A stretch of 64,000 nt of DNA from assembly GCA_009667805.1 (NCBI GenBank), contig CM019065.1, positions 13,870,952 through 13,934,951 of the forward strand, given 5' to 3'. Both the position numbers and the translations under genes were made by a program. Below the pieces are notes generated by a model that saw only the letters and a list, made by a program, of their open reading frames with translations, did not search any database and was not told where the DNA came from. This DNA comes from Leptobrachium leishanense. Lineage: Eukaryota > Chordata > Amphibia > Anura > Megophryidae. Shown piece after piece: positions 18,761 through 42,061 of the stretch. Position 1 is the first letter of the stretch, and every line of letters starts with the position of its first letter.

Positions 18761-18940
18761 TGTGTATATATATATAGACTGAGGGTACAGGATAAATATG
18801 TTTACATATAGATTGAGGGTAAAGGATAAATGCGTGTATATATAGACTGAAGGTTCAGGATAAATGTGTGATTAATAGACTGGGGGTACAGGATAAATGT
18901 GTGTACATATAGATTGAGGGTACAGGATAAATGTATGTAT
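18761..18940 (+). repeat. Degenerate ~34-bp minisatellite, island 1
   Basis: Units of TATAGACTGAGGGTACAGG followed by ATAAATGTGTG. The same unit continues at 22170-22573, 24562-24848 and 29636-29760, interrupted by insertions, and isolated units recur near 37010-37070 (inverted) and 42310-42440. Confidence 0.85.
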
Positions 18941-19216
18941 ATTCTTGGAGGTGAAATACAGCAGATTGCGTCCACTGTGTCATTCTCTGAAGTTTTGCCT
19001 GTGCATAACATTCAAGATAGAAAGATGCGCAATAAGGAATTCAATTTGTGGCTTCGGGAATGGTGTCGGGAGCAAGGATTTGGCTTTGTGTCCCATGATA
19101 GCTTTAATTGGAGCAGAAAGGAACTGTATAAAAAAGATGGTTTGCATCTTACTCATAGGGGAACATATGTTCTCAGTGAGAAGTTCAAAGGTTTCACAAA
19201 GAAATATTTAAACTAG
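18941..19216 (+). CDS. CR1 ORF1, C-terminal part (esterase-like domain)
   Basis: The open frame from the truncation point to the TAG at 19214-19216 encodes the end of the CR1 ORF1 protein. The DGLHLTHRGT block near its end matches the Asp/His block of the SGNH-type esterase domain known in CR1 ORF1 proteins; this assignment rests on the motif and position. The N-terminal part, including any nucleic-acid-binding region and the catalytic Ser block, was lost by 5' truncation, and the upstream open codons belong to the minisatellite. ORF1 ends TAT TTA AAC TAG, where T-TTA-AAC is a canonical -1 frameshift heptamer. ORF2 is in the -1 frame and overlaps the last 37 nt. Confidence 0.85.
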   Translation: MLGGEIQQIASTVSFSEVLPVHNIQDRKMRNKEFNLWLREWCREQGFGFVSHDSFNWSRKELYKKDGLHLTHRGTYVLSEKFKGFTKKYLN

Positions 19217-19259
19217 GAGGGGGGGACAAAAGGGTAAACAATCTGCCCGATTGTCCCCC
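19207..19259 (+). promoter_or_regulatory. Candidate -1 ribosomal frameshift signal between CR1 ORF1 and ORF2
   Basis: The heptamer TTTAAAC (19207-19213) sits in the ORF1 frame as T TTA AAC, directly before the ORF1 stop. After a 7-nt spacer (19214-19220), GGGGGACAA (19221-19229) pairs perfectly with TTGTCCCCC (19251-19259). An inner GGG/CCC pairing (19232-19234 with 19246-19248) lies beneath an 11-nt loop. Slipping by -1 enters ORF2, which has no ATG upstream of its endonuclease domain. Heptamer type, spacer and stem all match known -1 signals. Function here is inferred. Confidence 0.7.
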
Positions 19260-22062
19260 AAAACTAAATCGGAGGGTGCAAGCAACATGCGAGGTAAAAA
19301 ATGACAAGCTCAGAGTCGTGTCTATAAATGCTCGCAGTTTAGTCAATAAAATCAATGAACTGGAGGCAATGATGGCAGCTGAAAAAGTAGATTTAGTGGC
19401 GGTTACTGAGACATGGTTCAGTGAGAAAAATAACTGGGACATAACAATACCGGGGTACTCTTTATATAGAAAAGACAGAGAAGGTAGGAAAGGAGGAGGA
19501 GTGGCCCTGTATGTGAAAAACAACATAAAAACGAACCAAATAAAAGTGAGCGAGGTGAACATAGAGTCAGTTTGGGTTACACTAACATTTGGCAATCATA
19601 CAGTAGCTCGTGTAGGTGTGATCTATAGACCCCCTGGACAAGTAGAAGAGCTAGATAATCTGCTGGTTGAGGAAATAGCCAAAATGGCAATGAAGGGGGA
19701 AGTTATTATCATGGGGGACTTTAATCTTCCTGATGTGAACTGGAAAACCAAAACAGCTGGGTGCACCAGGAGTACAAATATTCTAAACTCCTTACTGGGA
19801 TTATCTCTAACACAAGTAGTTGAGGAGCCGACCCGTAAAGAGGCCATATTGGATTTAATACTCACAAATGGAGGTTTGGTATCGGACGTTGTTGTAGGTG
19901 AAAATTTGGGATCTAATGATCACCAGTCAGTATGGTTTAATATAAGAACAGGGATGGAGCCGCACCACACAAAAACAAAAGTTTTAGACTTTAAAAAAAC
20001 AGATTTTTCTAAAATGAGATTTTGTGTGAAGGAGTCATTATCAGACTGGAGGAGTTTAAAGGGAGTCCAGGAGAAATGGGATTATTTAAAGGAAGCATTA
20101 TTGAAGGCCACAGGAAATTGCATTCGGCTTGTTAGCAAAAACAAAAAAGGGAAGAAACCACTGTGGTACTCTGCAGAAGTGGCCAAAATAGTAAAGAACA
20201 AGAAGATAGCATTCAATAATTATAAAAAAACTCAGCGTGAAGAAGATAGGCAAACCTATAAGATTAGGCAGAAAGAGGCAAAGCAATTTATAAGAGCTTC
20301 CAAAGCACACGCAGAAGAGAAAATAGCTCAGTCAGTAAAAAAGGGGGACAAAACATTTTTTAGATACATAAACGAGAAAAGAAAAGTAAAACAAGGATTA
20401 GTTAGATTAAAAACAAAGGAAGGAAGGTATGTAGAAGAGGATAAAAGTCTCGCTGACTGCCTCAATAAATATTTTTGTTCAGTCTTTGCAGAAGAAAAGG
20501 AAGGAAAGGGACCTCAGTTAGGAGAGAACACTAAAGAGACATTTACATATGAGTTTACAGAGGAGGAGGTTCTAAAGCAGCTGTCTAAAGTAAAGACAAA
20601 GAAGTCAATGGGGCCTGATGGGATCCACCCTAAATTATTAAAAGAGCTCAGTGATGTAATAGCAAAACCGTTAACAGATTTATTTAACCAATCCTTGTTA
20701 ACAGGAGTCGTCCCAGAAGACTGGAAATTAGCAAATGTTGTGCCTATTTACAAGAAGGGTAGTAGGGAGGAATCGGGGAACTATAGGCCAGTTAGTCTTA
20801 CGTCAGTAGTTGGGAAATTAATGGAAACCATGTTAAAGGAAAGGATTGTTGAACACCTAAAAACACATAGATTACAGGATCAGAAACAACATGGGTTTAC
20901 CTCAGGGAGATCATGCCAAACTAATCTTATTGATTTTTTTGATTGGGTAACAAAAATAATAGACACAGGTGGTGCAGTAGACATTGCTTATTTAGATTTC
21001 AGTAAGGCTTTTGATACTGTTCCGCATAGAAGGTTTATCAATAAATTGCAATCTTTGAGCTTGGATTCCAATATTGTTGAATGGATTAGGCAGTGGCTGA
21101 GTGACAGACAACAGAGGGTTGTGGTAAATGGAGTTTATTCGGCGCAAGGTCTTGTTACCAGTGGGGTATCTCAGGGGTCAGTACTTGGACCCATTCTCTT
21201 TAATATTTTTATTAGTGATATTGCAGAAGGTATTAATGGAAAAGTATGTCTTTTTGCTGATGACACAAAGATTTGCAACCGGGTTGACGTTCCTGGAGGG
21301 ATCAGCCACATGACAAATGATTTAGGTAAGCTAAAAAAATGGTCGGAGTTGTGGCAATTGAGTTTTAATGTGGATAAGTGCAAGATAATGCACCTGGGAC
21401 GTAAAAACCCAAGGGCTGAATATAGAATATTTGATACAGTCCTAACCTCAACATCTGAGGAAAGGGATTTAGGGGTTATTATTTCAGAGGATCTAAGGGT
21501 AAGTAGTCAATGTAATAGAGCAGCAGGAAATGCTAGCAGAATGCTTGGTTGTGTAGGGAGAGGTATTAGCAGTAGGAAAAGGGAAGTGCTCATGCCACTG
21601 TACAGAGCACTGGTGAGACCTCACTTGGAGTACTGTGTGCAGTACTGGAGACCGTATCTCCAGAAGGATATAGACATCTTGGAGAGAGTTCAGAGAAGGG
21701 CTACTAAAATGGTGTACGGCTTGAAGGAGAAAAGTTACCAAGAAAGGCTTAATGATCTTAACATGTACAGCTTGGAAAAAAGACGAGACAGAGGAGATCT
21801 GATAGAAACATTTAAATACGTAAAGGGAATACACAAGGTAGAGGAAGGGAGTATATTTAAAAGGAAACAAAGTAGCAAAACAAGAGGACATAGTCTTAGA
21901 TTAGAGGGGCAAAGGTTTAAAAGTAACATCAGGAAGCATTATTTTACTGAGCGGGTGGTGGATACATGGAACAGTCTTCCAGTAGAAGTGGTAGAGGCCA
22001 AAACAGTAATTGAATTTAAGCAAGCATGGGATAGGCATAAGGCTATCCTAAAGAAAAGATAA
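19213..22062 (+). CDS. CR1 ORF2: endonuclease and reverse transcriptase, intact
   Basis: This frame is open from 19180 to the TAA at 22060-22062, about 950 codons after the proposed frameshift entry. The protein nicks target DNA and copies the LINE RNA at the nick (target-primed reverse transcription). The N-terminal APE-type endonuclease shows SINARS, TETWF, IYRPPG, GDFNLPDVNW (near 19714) and SNDHQS (near 19912). The reverse transcriptase follows, with MGPDGIHPKLLK, NYRPVSLTSV, YLDFSKAFDTVPH (near 20989), GVSQGSVLGP and FADD (near 21253). The C-terminus ends with the CR1-typical RVQRRATKMV and VVDTWNSLPVE blocks. No stop or frameshift was seen. The first in-frame ATG lies about 30 codons inside the endonuclease, so a conventional start is unlikely. 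Confidence 0.95.
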   Translation, partial: LGGGDKRVNNLPDCPPKLNRRVQATCEVKNDKLRVVSINARSLVNKINELEAMMAAEKVDLVAVTETWFSEKNNWDITIPGYSLYRKDREGRKGGGVALYVKNNIKTNQIKVSEVNIESVWVTLTFGNHTVARVGVIYRPPGQVEELDNLLVEEIAKMAMKGEVIIMGDFNLPDVNWKTKTAGCTRSTNILNSLLGLSLTQVVEEPTRKEAILDLILTNGGLVSDVVVGENLGSNDHQSVWFNIRTGMEPHHTKTKVLDFKKTDFSKMRFCVKESLSDWRSLKGVQEKWDYLKEALLKATGNCIRLVSKNKKGKKPLWYSAEVAKIVKNKKIAFNNYKKTQREEDRQTYKIRQKEAKQFIRASKAHAEEKIAQSVKKGDKTFFRYINEKRKVKQGLVRLKTKEGRYVEEDKSLADCLNKYFCSVFAEEKEGKGPQLGENTKETFTYEFTEEEVLKQLSKVKTKKSMGPDGIHPKLLKELSDVIAKPLTDLFNQSLLTGVVPEDWKLANVVPIYKKGSREESGNYRPVSLTSVVGKLMETMLKERIVEHLKTHRLQDQKQHGFTSGRSCQTNLIDFFDWVTKIIDTGGAVDIAYLDFSKAFDTVPHRRFINKLQSLSLDSNIVEWIRQWLSDRQQRVVVNGVYSAQGLVTSGVSQGSVLGPILFNIFISDIAEGINGKVCLFADDTKICNRVDVPGGISHMTNDLGKLKKWSELWQLSFNVDKCKIMHLGRKNPRAEYRIFDTVLTSTSEERDLGVIISEDLRVSSQCNRAAGNASRMLGCVGRGISSRKREVLMPLYRALVRPHLEYCVQYWRPYLQKDIDILERVQRRATKMVYGLKEKSYQERLNDLNMYSLEKRRDRGDLIETFKYVKGIHKVEEGSIFKRKQSSKTRGHSLRLEGQRFKSNIRKHYFTERVVDTWNSLPVEVVEAKTVIEFKQAWDRHKAILKKR

Positions 22063-22128
22063 ATCCAGGTAAAGTATCCATGTAATTGGGCAGACTAGAT
22101 GGGCCGAAAGGTTCTTATCTGCCGACAT

Positions 22129-22168
22129 TTTTCTATGTTTCTATGTTTCTATGTTTCTATGTTTCTAT
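22129..22168 (+). repeat. CR1 3' octamer tail
   Basis: About five CTATGTTT octamers end the CR1 copy. The minus-strand copy at 31057 has a shorter version. Confidence 0.9.
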
Positions 22169-24848: not shown

Positions 24849-25675
24849 TACAGTTGTGTTCAAAATTATTCAACCCCCAAAGCTGTAAAGGGTTTTAGGG
24901 AATTTAGTGTACATTTGTAATTGTATTCAGAATGAAATCCTACAAGGACTTTTTAAAGAACCATATGCAACTAAAATGACATCAATTGGTTTTGTAATAC
25001 AGCAGTAAATGTTTCTTTTGTGAATTCTTCATTGACACAATTATTCAACCCCTTAAAGACTACCACTCTGAAGAACAGAGGTTCATTCAAGTGTTTTCAA
25101 TAAGGTATTGAAAACACCTGTGGATGTCACGGAGCAGCAATAAAGCATAATAAGCACCAATTAGGCAGCTTTAAAATGACTGTGATACTCAGCTCCTTCT
25201 AGACATTTACTGGTGTGGTTACAAACATGGTGAAGTCAAGAGAATGGTCCAGGAAGACAAGAGAAGAGGTGATTACTCTTCACAGGAAGGGCAATGGCTA
25301 TAAGAAGATTGCAAAGATGTTAAACATACCAAGAGAGACCATAGGAAGCATCATTCGCAAATTCAAGGCAAAGGGCACTGTTGAAACGCTACCTGGTCGT
25401 GGCAGAAAGAAGATGCTGACTTCGACTGCTGTGCGCTACCTGAAGCGTAGAGTGGAGAAAAGTCCCGTGTGACTGCTGAGGAACTGAGAAAAGATTTGTC
25501 AGATGTGGGTACTGAAGTTTCAGCTCAGACAATACGGCGCACACTGCGTAATGAAGGCCTCCATGCCAGAACTCCCAGGCGCACCCCCTTGCTGTCTCCA
25601 AAGAATAAGAAGAGTCGACTGCAGTATGCCAAAAGTCATGTGGACAAACCACAGACGTTTTGGAATAGTGTTCTG

Positions 25676-27193
<1,518 letters not shown>

Positions 27194-27418
27194 TAAGATT
27201 GAATGTCACTTGGGGGTTAAATAAAACTGATAATGATGTGAGCACAGAAAAGACATTTGTGGTTATTTCATTATAAATGTTATGTTATATTTGTCTGACC
27301 TACACGTGCCTCTTTGATTTAATTGTAAGCAAGATGACTGAATGATCAAAATCAATGTCAAACTGGCCAAAACACTCAATTTCAGTGGGGGTTGAATAAT
27401 TTTGAACACAACTGTATA

Positions 27419-33733: not shown

Positions 33734-35350
<1,617 letters not shown>

Positions 35351-37508: not shown

Positions 37509-40500
37509 CTAGGTTACATGTTTACAGGTGCATTCTGTATTGAGGTATGTTAACAGGGAAATTTTGAGTGACTTAAGACTGGTGGAAGATTTGATGGTGT
37601 CTGGGAGGTTATTCCATAATTGTGGTGCTCTGTAGGAAAATGAGGACCGAGCCACTGTCTTTTTGTATTGTGGCATTGCAAGTAAGGTGCTGGTCCTGGA
37701 TCGGAGGTTATAGGATGAGGGAGCTGCTGGGGGAAGCAGTCTATTCAGGTAGGGTGGCAGCTTCCCAGAGATGCTCTTAAACACCAGGCTGGAAAGGTGA
37801 AGGGTGCGTCTGGATTCTAGCGATGGCCAGTTTAGCTGTTTTAACATGTCACAATGGTGGGTCATGTAGTTACATTGTAGCGCAAAGCGGCAGAATGAGT
37901 TATACAGTGTAGTAAGTTTATGAAGGTGTGTTTGCGGGGCGGCTGCATACACTACATCTCCGTAATCAATAGCCGGCATAAGCATTTGCTGTACAATCTG
38001 CTTTCTTACCGCGGGACTCAGGCAGGATTTGTTTCTGTACAGGGCACCTAGTTTGGGGTAAAGTTTAGATGAGAGTTTTTCGATGTGGGGGCCAAAGGAT
38101 AGATTAGGGTCCAACCACATACCTAGATATTTGAGAGAAGTGACTGTGGTCAGTGTGCCATTTGATATTGTCCCAACACATAGATGGGGATTTTGCAATT
38201 TGTGTAGTTTAGGTGCTGTTCCAAAGAGCATCGTTACAGTTTTGTCAGTATTTAAAAAAAGTTTGTTGTTTTTGATCCACTTTTCTACCTCTGTGAATTG
38301 TTCTTGCAGCACGGCCTCCAGCTGCGGGAGATTTGGTTTGCTGGTATAGATCACAGTGTCGTCTGCGTACATATGTACAGTTGAGGCTTTGCAGACGTTG
38401 GGCAGATCATTTATGAATATTGTGAATAGCAGGGGGCCTAGTACTGAGCCTTGGGGTACACCGCAAGTGACTGGGAGCGGGAGGGAGGAGCTGCCAGAAA
38501 TTGACACATATTGTGATCGGTCGGATACATATGATTGAAACCAGGTTAGCGTGCGATCACCAATGCCAGAGTTTTTAAGTTTTTCTAACAAGATGCCATG
38601 GTCTACCGTGTCAAAGGCCTTGGCAAAATCAAGGAAGATGGCTCCAGTTAGGTTTCCTTGTTCCATCCCAGCTTGGATATCATTGCAGACTTTTAAAAGG
38701 GCGGTTGTGGTTGAGTGATTTGGGCGAAAGCCTGATTGATCCGGGTTAAGTAGTTCCAATATTGATAATAATCACGTAATTGTGTGTAGACACATTTTTC
38801 CAAGACTTTTGACATTACAGGGAGCAACGATATCGGACGGTAGTTGGATACCAAAGTACTGTCCCCACTTTTATGGATAGGTACCACTCTTGCAGTCTTC
38901 CAGAGCTTGGGTATGTAACCAGTTGCCAGTGACTCATTTATTAGGGTTGCGACTGGATTTGCAATTGCTGGCGCACTGATTTTCAGCAGCATTGCTGGTA
39001 TTTGATCAGGTCCAGACTGGTATTTCATTTTTTGCTTACGGAGAAGTTTAGTAACGACACTGACAGGCACTGGTCTAAAACTGAATTCCTGTGTGATACA
39101 GGGACTTTGCACAGTTGTTGGGGCCTGACCTGCACGAGGCCTCTCTGATTGCATGTCATTTCCTAGCTTGGCAATCAAAGTGGTGGCACATCCAACAAAA
39201 TAATCATTAAAGGCATTTGCTACATCTAGCGGGTGTTGCAGGGTTTGGTTGTTTACTTTGACAGCAGCTGGCTGGGAGTGGACTGGGGTGCTTGTATGTT
39301 ACTTATGGTTCTCCAAAAGTTTCTAGGGTTTGAGATGTTATTGTTTAGATTTTCATTGAAGTAATGGGCTTTGGCCATTTTTGTTTGTTTTGTGCATTCA
39401 TTCCGACATTTTCGGTATTCGTAGTGATCGTTCATGGAACCAGTACTCTTGAAATTTGACCACCGTGAATCTCTAAGCTGGTACATTAGTGTAAGATCAG
39501 CTGTAACCCAGGAGAGATGAGTCCCTTTTACTCGCACTTTACGCAGCGGGGCATGGGAATTCCAGACTTGCAGGAGCTCAGACTGAAAGTATTCAACTGC
39601 ACAGTCTAGGTCTGGGATTAGGTTTAGCCTGTACCAGGGGAGCTGTTTGAGTTCACTTAGGAAGGTTTCAAGAATAAATTTCTTGAAAGACCTGGTGGTT
39701 ATTACCTTTGGGGAAGATTTCAAGGCCTTAATTTTGCGCACGCAGTACACTAGACAATGGTCACTAAAGCTATTAGCAAGCACGCCTGCCTCCTGTATTC
39801 TATCAGGAGATGAGGAGAGAATCCAGTCCAACAAGGTATGGTTGGGGCTTTTCATATTAATGCGAGTGGGGGAGGAGATTAATTGAGTTAGCTGCAAAGT
39901 TTTAAACAGCGAGCAGTGTTTATTGTTTTTAGGATTTAGCCAATCTGTATTAAAATCGCCAAGGACCAGCAGTTCACTTTTTTGGTTTTGGGCAAGTAGG
40001 TTATTAAGGATTTGAGATATGTCAGAGAGGGAGTGCACTGGAGAGCTCGGTGGGCGATAGAACCAGCAACAATGATTGATTTACTGAATGGGATCTCAAT
40101 TATACCAGAGAAGAAATCAAAGGTGACAGGAGAGCTAGAAGTCTGTAAGGGGGTGAACTTTATGGACTCCTCAACATAAATAACAATTCCCCCTCCTCTC
40201 TTTGCTCTGTCTTTTCTAAAACATGAATACCCCTGTATTGATATGGCAGAGTCTGGTACTTTTGGGGTTAACCATGACTCTGTGAGCACAATGATTTTGG
40301 GTTTGTAATAACAACACCAAGCCTGAAGCTCATCCAATTTAGGGAGTAAACTACGGATGTTACAGTGCACAAATGAGAGGCCTTTTTTAGTGGGGAGACT
40401 AAAGGTTGTGTCACCTATAGGACCAGGGTTAGTTTCCACATCGTTTGCCAGGGAAAGTAGCAGAATAAATAGGAATTTGGACAGTGTTTTCTTTTGATAA

Positions 40501-40817
40501 TGTGGTTGCAGAGTTTTAAATCTTTGTGTGGGGGTAGGAGGGCTGGATTTTAACACTCTCCACCAGCACTCAGCTGATAGGTTAAAAGAACTGAGCAGGC
40601 TGTGGTGTATTGGCACTGGTTTTCCATCCTGGGGTAATTGGAAAGGTGTATAGAAGGAGAGAGTAGCTTTAGAGAGATGGGATGATAAAGAAAAGAGAAG
40701 CAATAGTGGGATAAACATTATAGTGAAAGGTGTTGGAGGTGAGTAAACAGGAAATAGAGAGGTAAATGGTGTAGGTTGCTGCGATATCACATGATCAATT
40801 AGTTGGGTATATATCAA
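37509..40817 (-). pseudogene. L2-type LINE polyprotein (2A, endonuclease, RT), three frameshifts
   Basis: About 1,100 codons across four frame segments. From the start: an N-terminal region of about 120 residues with hydrophobic stretches; a 2A motif (DVETNPGP); then APE-type endonuclease (HCNIRSLLPK, LTESWLT, GDFNTDWL, SDHCLVYCV); then reverse transcriptase (YQSGPDQIPAMLLK, NYRPISLLPV, FLDFAKAFDTVDH, GVPQGSVLGP, MYADDTVIY); and the L2-type C-terminus (RAPQLWNNLPD). One-base indels lie at about 40060 (inside the YRPP block), 39283 and 38750. There are no other stops, so the copy died recently. The ATG at 40815-40817 is the first in frame; whether it is the true start is not known. Confidence 0.9.
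40419..40442 (-). other. 2A translational recoding motif, DVETNPGP
   Basis: Residues 126-133 of the LINE polyprotein read DVETNPGP, a perfect match to the D-x-E-x-N-P-G-P consensus at which ribosomes skip a peptide bond before the final Pro. It is preceded by the hydrophobic FLFILLLSLAN. 2A motifs near the N-terminus of APE-type LINE proteins are documented, including L2 and CR1 relatives. Here it would separate a 132-residue leader from the endonuclease-RT. Confidence 0.9.
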
Positions 40818-41081
40818 ATGAAAACCTTGGGGTGGGTGGGTTGGTTTTGTAATACAGTAGTAAATGTTTCTTTTGTGAATTCTTCATTGACACAATTATT
40901 CAACCCCTTAAAGACTACCACTCTGAAGAACAGAGGTTCATTCAAGTGTTTTCAATCCGGTATTGAAAACACCTGTGGATGTCACGGAGCAGCAATAAAG
41001 CATAATAAGCACCAATTAGGCAGCTTTAAAATGACTGTGATACTCAGCTCCTTCTAGACATTTACTGGTGTGGTTACAAAC

Positions 41082-42061
<980 letters not shown>

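What the first reader, a model, noticed from the sequence alone, without database searches (positions are those of the whole stretch)
19180..19280. Candidate -1 programmed frameshift joining CR1 ORF1 and ORF2
Seen: T-TTA-AAC in the ORF1 frame directly before the ORF1 TAG; a 7-nt spacer; a 9-bp perfect GC-rich stem (19221-19229 with 19251-19259); ORF2 in exactly the -1 frame, open from 19180, with no ATG before its endonuclease domain. Known: this heptamer, spacer and stem are the hallmarks of -1 frameshifting in RNA viruses and some retroelements. I do not know of CR1 LINEs being described this way. If right, ORF2 is made as a fusion to the ORF1 esterase protein at low frequency.
Basis: partly seen in the sequence, partly recalled or inferred. 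Interest (0 to 1): 0.92.

Follow-up and report, generated by a model that had tools for sequence, protein, structure and literature searches.

The report
Frameshift signal joining LINE genes
A frog jumping gene of the CR1 type carries, between its two genes, a slippery sequence and an RNA hairpin of the kind that some viruses use to make ribosomes change reading frame, which could explain how it makes its second protein although that gene has no usable start codon.

Summary
Observation confirmed. In a 5'-truncated CR1-type LINE, ORF1 (esterase) ends T TTA AAC TAG; after 7 nt comes a strong hairpin; ORF2 is in the -1 frame with no in-frame ATG until inside the endonuclease. In the window's own genome (3.5 Gb; nearest named protein is from the frog Leptobrachium leishanense) 28 near-identical copies read, the window's included, share the junction (ranked by similarity over it). 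In a sister subfamily ranked by ORF1 alone, 106 of 110 copies keep TTTAAAC. Against: only 56 of 103 of these have ORF2 in -1 (7 of 15 with an uninterrupted ORF2 stretch), mostly because a G-run in the stem varies; 6-G copies do not cluster on a tree, which suggests recurrent loss from a 7-G, -1 source. A distant CR1-type element (about 41% identity), found by its ORF2, has the same layout with T TTT TTA, but also an ATG before its endonuclease. Two other relatives join ORF1 and ORF2 in frame by UGA CUA, a readthrough context. Best reading: -1 programmed frameshifting makes an ORF1-ORF2 fusion. Frameshifting was not measured, and stem covariation was not tested.

The parts
18942..22168 (+). 5'-truncated CR1-type LINE copy (end of ORF1, all of ORF2, 3' end with TTTCTATG repeats), lying in a minisatellite (by eye)
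   Evidence: other genome copies align from base 3 of 18940-22160 onward
18947..19216 (+). ORF1 C-terminal part, SGNH/GDSL esterase end (DGLH), ends KYLN*; in other copies the same ORF runs upstream to a 306-residue protein
   Evidence: Pfam Lipase_GDSL_2 E 0.002 for this piece, below the curated cut-off; relatives P0018/P0020; full-length ORF1 open in 5 of 8 longer loci
19207..19213 (+). slippery heptamer T TTA AAC in ORF1 phase
   Evidence: present in 28 of 28 (the window's own copy included) and 106 of 110 genome copies
19214..19216 (+). ORF1 stop TAG directly after the heptamer; the next zero-frame stop (TAA) is the seventh codon after it, so plain readthrough cannot reach ORF2
19214..19220 (+). 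7-nt spacer
19221..19259 (+). stem-loop: 9 bp (19221-19229/19251-19259), 2x2 internal loop, 5 bp (19232-19236/19244-19248), 7-nt loop
19180..22062 (+). ORF2, -1 frame, 960 aa, no ATG before the endonuclease
19327..19893 (+). AP-type endonuclease domain
   Evidence: Pfam PF03372, residues 50-238 of ORF2
20752..21417 (+). reverse transcriptase domain
   Evidence: Pfam PF00078, residues 525-746 of ORF2

Best explanation
The junction is a -1 programmed ribosomal frameshift site. Ribosomes translating the esterase ORF1 reach T TTA AAC while the hairpin 7 nt downstream holds them. Most read on to the adjacent UAG and release ORF1p. A minority slip back one base (TTA AAC to TTT AAA) and continue as ...KYLN-LGGGDKRV... 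into ORF2, giving an ORF1-endonuclease-reverse transcriptase fusion, as in retroviral Gag-Pol. Shown: sequence, frame, predicted hairpin, lack of a usable ATG, presence in many genomic copies, the same layout in a distant relative. Inferred: that slippage happens, its rate, and that the fusion (or a product cut from it) is the active ORF2p.
For: Anatomy and chance tests. Three of five ORF1 hits reach the C-terminus and all three stop at the same LN*. TTTAAAC in 28 of 28 near-identical copies (ranked by similarity over the junction, the window's own included) and in 106 of 110 sister-subfamily copies ranked by ORF1 only. The sister subfamily's loop is 3 nt longer, which keeps the -1 frame; its commonest junction (27 of 109 read) is a 7-G, -1 form. 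6-G copies do not cluster on a tree made without the junction. Independent replicate: L050 reads CGT TTT TTA GTG TAA at the end of ORF1 (T TTT TTA in phase), ORF2 in -1 (1003 codons to the contig end, no stop), and a stem starting 8-11 nt on; its junction fold is within the top 0.2% of 3408 positions, and 1.4% of codon shuffles put a heptamer so near the end. An annotated Leptobrachium protein, 98% identical, starts at the first in-frame M, inside the endonuclease.
Against: Only 56 of 103 sister-subfamily copies have ORF2 in -1, and of 15 with ORF2 residues 41-470 uninterrupted only 7 do (6 in +1, 2 in zero frame); the G-run inside the stem is unstable. 88 of the 103 are not intact, so heptamer conservation among copies reflects common descent at least as much as selection, and the tree of such similar copies is weakly resolved, which can hide clustering. 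Covariation was not tested. L050 has an in-frame ATG 30 nt after its ORF1 stop, and with 77 nt folded its z-score is only -1.2, 23 of 200 shuffles folding as well (z -3.6 for the 31-nt hairpin). I looked for a pseudoknot by eye only and saw none. No translation data.
Confidence: 0.75

Rival explanations
1. ORF2 is started internally after ORF1 ends, by reinitiation or at a non-AUG codon (CTG 19243, GTG 19276 or GTG 19318), with the hairpin helping; the heptamer is incidental.
For: In-frame CTG/GTG codons exist; 8 of 15 copies with an uninterrupted ORF2 stretch are not in -1; L050 has an ATG shortly after the ORF1 stop. [quoted passage not shown]
Against: Four out-of-frame ATGs precede the first in-frame one; it would not explain an in-phase heptamer plus one of the element's strongest hairpins at the junction in two distant elements; 6-G copies do not form a lineage on the tree.
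Confidence: 0.15
2. Chance: ORF2 expression uses an unrelated route and the heptamer and hairpin are coincidences.
For: Heptamers are common (1251 in the window); the finding was picked out by a reader from much sequence.
Against: Each part is rare at the junction and L050, fetched by its ORF2, repeats the layout.
Confidence: 0.08
3. A spliced or slipped transcript joins the frames (RNA-level rather than ribosomal).
For: The G-run varies in length between genomic copies, so it may also slip during transcription or reverse transcription.
Against: The G-run lies after the ORF1 stop, so slippage there cannot by itself bypass the TAG. Splicing was not examined.
Confidence: 0.02

Closest known systems
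-1 programmed ribosomal frameshifting of RNA viruses and retroviruses (coronavirus U UUA AAC; HIV-1 U UUU UUA with a stem-loop; motifs recalled)
   Same: X XXY YYZ heptamer in the upstream phase, short spacer, stable stem, downstream ORF in -1 coding a polymerase
   Different: In a non-LTR retrotransposon; UAG directly after the heptamer; plain stem-loop, no pseudoknot seen by eye; efficiency unmeasured
CR1-clade LINEs with an esterase ORF1 (Type IV ORF1 of PMC4120745, passages seen; esterase paper PMC3905857, passages seen)
   Same: Esterase ORF1 followed by an endonuclease-RT ORF2
   Different: Neither paper's main text contains the word frameshift (term searches); the -1 junction is not described in the passages I saw
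Telomeric LINEs of Drosophila (HeT-A, TART)
   Same: Recoding in a non-LTR element: HeT-A gag is said to need a frameshift (PMC5009743, section 13)
   Different: HeT-A encodes no RT; not an ORF1-ORF2 fusion
LINEs with 2A peptides, and stop-start coupling of SART1 (both recalled)
   Same: Recoding or coupling in LINE translation
   Different: 2A separates products and SART1 reinitiates at UAAUG; here a fusion by change of frame

Membership tests
CR1-clade LINE | Endonuclease plus RT ORF2 that groups with CR1 elements | tested here: inconclusive
Domains met.
CR1-clade LINE | Esterase-type ORF1 (one of several ORF1 types in the clade) | tested here: met
   P0018/P0020 carry precomputed PF13472 and P0019 is named SGNH hydrolase-type esterase by UniRef; my own scan is just under the Pfam cut-off (31.6 and 30.5 bits against 32.9)
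-1 programmed frameshift site | X XXY YYZ heptamer in phase with the upstream ORF | tested here: met
-1 programmed frameshift site | Stable stem or pseudoknot about 5-9 nt downstream | tested here: met
   (predicted RNA fold)
-1 programmed frameshift site | Downstream ORF open in -1 in source copies | tested here: inconclusive
   Met in 28 of 28 near-identical copies, the window's included; 56 of 103 sister-subfamily copies in -1, 52 of them open past the stop; 6-G copies not clustered
-1 programmed frameshift site | Covariation in the stem | not tested
   No pair count was made; the copies read are too alike
-1 programmed frameshift site | Trans-frame protein made | not testable with these tools
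   needs a reporter or mass spectrometry

The most novel reading that the evidence does not exclude
Recoding at the ORF1-ORF2 junction is a general habit of CR1/L2-type LINEs: some lineages fuse the two proteins by -1 frameshifting (this frog element, L050), others by UGA-CUA stop readthrough (L054, L055, perhaps L051/L052 with UGA-CAA), while others carry 2A peptides ahead of the endonuclease (the L2-like element in this window, L053, L058). LINE ORF2p would then be a Gag-Pol-like product set by a recoding rate, rather than the product of reinitiation.
Probability: 0.5. Interest if true: 0.85.

Novelty: new variant of a known kind. Interest (0 to 1): 0.72.

Why it matters
How LINEs make their scarce ORF2 protein is an open question (the review section read leaves the mammalian LINE route unknown). 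A compact, testable frameshift signal in an abundant vertebrate LINE would give a defined ratio of ORF1p to ORF2p and a covalent ORF1-ORF2 product, with consequences for how the RNP assembles. Five answered paper searches listed no title or abstract start reporting this in CR1; the library lacks most subscription papers, and I could not see the original chicken and turtle CR1 papers, so priority is not established.

Tried and rejected
Readthrough of the UAG: rejected, a zero-frame TAA is the seventh codon after it. Copy-specific mutation: rejected. A 6-G lineage with another mechanism: not supported, 6-G copies do not cluster. Rfam: no match in 19150-19350 at E up to 1. Viral contigs: ORF2, ORF1 and pattern scans gave no relative (the 51 pattern loci were checked by tblastn with E up to 0.01, no hit). 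Plasmids: 42 records with distant matches, none covering 80% of ORF2; the best of the 20 listed covers 38%. GTDB contigs gave 11 loci, by their titles microbial bins, by content evidently animal DNA. Junctions were examined in 8 of the 11 (L050-L056, L058); L057, L059 and L060 were not used; L056 shows no clear ORF1 by eye.

An unbiased genome count of the G-run and genome searches with P0021, P0022 and the L050 ORF1 did not complete. My word 'older' in the notebook for the second subfamily is unproven; it is called a sister subfamily here (its ORF2 is on average 97.5-97.7% identical to the window's).

Full report
What is there. The window holds a CR1-type LINE copy, 5'-truncated at about 18942 and ending in TTTCTATG repeats near 22168. 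It keeps the last 89 codons of ORF1 and a complete 960-codon ORF2 frame with endonuclease and reverse transcriptase domains. ORF1 ends TAT TTA AAC TAG. The seven bases TTTAAAC (19207-19213) are in the phase needed for a -1 slip. Seven bases later a hairpin begins: 9 perfect pairs, a 2x2 internal loop and 5 more pairs (-25.8 kcal/mol, z -4.1). ORF2 is exactly in -1 and open from 19180, so a slip at the heptamer runs straight into it. The first in-frame ATG, 19369, lies after the first strand of the endonuclease, and four out-of-frame ATGs precede it.

Is it more than chance? Among 1251 heptamers of this class on both strands the site ranks 4th for downstream folding, and it is the only one of 19 with a near stop, a long -1 frame and a fold below -10 kcal/mol. 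Only 1.5% of codon shuffles of ORF1 put an in-phase heptamer at its very end, and no position of 3161 in the element has a stronger 40-nt downstream fold.

Relatives by protein. Of five ORF1 hits three reach the C-terminus (P0018, P0020, P0021); all three end ...LN at the same column as the window. The other two, P0019 and P0022, are Leptobrachium gene models that diverge before the end and say nothing about it. The best ORF2 hit, a Leptobrachium leishanense protein (98% identical), begins at the internal M.

Copies in the same genome. The genome search answered twice against 38 busy replies. The first gave 787 candidates, of which 40 were scored; I read 28 (8 loci, one of them the window itself, and 20 fetched). 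All 28 have an identical junction, but they were ranked by similarity over it, so this shows only that the junction is not private to one copy. The second used P0020, which covers ORF1 only; 129 of 8892 candidates were scored, and I read the first 110 (30 loci, and 80 fetched). Nearly all belong to a sister subfamily whose loop is 3 nt longer. TTTAAAC is present in 106 of 110; the others read TTTAAGC, TCTAAAC, CTTAAAC and, in L143, which my script could not place, TTGAAAC. One further copy (L113) has lost the TAG. In the 103 copies with the endonuclease start, ORF2 is in -1 in 56 (52 of them open past the ORF1 stop), in +1 in 36 and in the zero frame in 11. Of 15 with residues 41-470 of ORF2 uninterrupted the split is 7, 6 and 2. 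This is the main result against the reading. Of the 36 in +1, 27 have 6 instead of 7 G in the stem. On a tree of ORF2 DNA without the junction, 78 copies with 6 or 7 G need 26 changes, against a mean of 22.7 in 500 shuffles, 493 of which need as few or fewer: the 6-G copies do not cluster, so they look like repeated loss from a 7-G source (or reverse-transcription or assembly slippage), not a propagating 6-G line. The copies are so alike that the tree is weakly resolved. In the 37 copies with ORF2 in -1 and open past the stop (the 28 included) none has an in-frame ATG before the endonuclease anchor.

A distant replicate. A scan of GTDB contigs for ORF2 relatives returned 11 loci. L050, about 41% identical in ORF2, has an esterase ORF1 ending CGT TTT TTA GTG TAA: T TTT TTA in phase, ORF2 in -1 and open for 1003 codons to the contig end, and a stem beginning 8-11 nt on. 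Its junction fold lies in the top 0.2% of 3408 positions, and 1.4% of shuffles place a heptamer so near the end. Two cautions: an in-frame ATG follows the ORF1 stop by 30 nt, and the 77-nt fold has z only -1.2. Window element and L050 share a supported group in the tree but are far apart, so the layout is either ancient or convergent.

Other solutions among the relatives. L054 and L055 (from Poribacteria bins, so presumably sponge DNA) have ORF1 and ORF2 in one frame separated by GAC TGA CTA, with the endonuclease starting a few codons on and no ATG for 340 and 66 codons. UGA CUA is a strong readthrough context (recalled). L051 and L052, nearly identical, have TGA CAA between same-frame ORFs. 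L053 and L058 (from Bathymodiolus symbiont records, so presumably mussel DNA) and the L2-like element in this window carry NPGP 2A-like motifs before the endonuclease.

Literature. Five searches were answered; none listed a CR1 frameshift. In the review PMC5009743 I saw passages and read section 13; it mentions a HeT-A gag frameshift and leaves LINE ORF2 initiation open. Passages only were seen of PMC4120745, PMC3905857, PMC4316615, PMC1925062 and PMC7140322. The original chicken and turtle CR1 papers were not seen.

Conclusion. The site has the sequence features of a -1 frameshift signal that could be tested here, in a place where one is needed. Slippage, its rate, the fusion protein and conservation of the stem beyond near copies remain to be shown.

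Noticed in passing
window 40419-40451 (-), inside ORF 39936-40883 (-): A decayed L2-like LINE (37.5-40.9 kb, minus strand) carries a 2A motif, LANDVETNPGP, just before its endonuclease.
   Followed up: partly
L054:1435-1443, L055:1520-1528: Two LINEs from Poribacteria bins join ORF1 and ORF2 in frame by GAC TGA CTA, with no ATG for 340 and 66 codons: candidate stop-readthrough LINEs.
   Followed up: partly
L051:353-358, L052:1230-1235: ORF1 and ORF2 in one frame separated by TGA CAA; the first ATG is at the start of the endonuclease.
   Followed up: partly
L053, L058: LINEs from Bathymodiolus symbiont records with NPGP 2A-like motifs ahead of the endonuclease.
   Followed up: partly
L056:595-3519: LINE ORF2 open for 974 codons with no ATG in the first 221 and no ORF1 recognisable by eye upstream.
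   Followed up: no
window 19219-19225 and genome copies L091-L200: The G-run at the stem varies (mostly 7 or 6 G) without clustering on the tree: an unstable site that may switch copies off.
   Followed up: yes
window 25451-27196 (+), 34086-35132 (+), 41058-42061 (+): Tc1-like transposase open frames, some interrupted (family name from recall).
   Followed up: no
GTDB records behind L050-L059: Microbial genome bins hold animal-type LINEs, evidently contamination.
   Followed up: no
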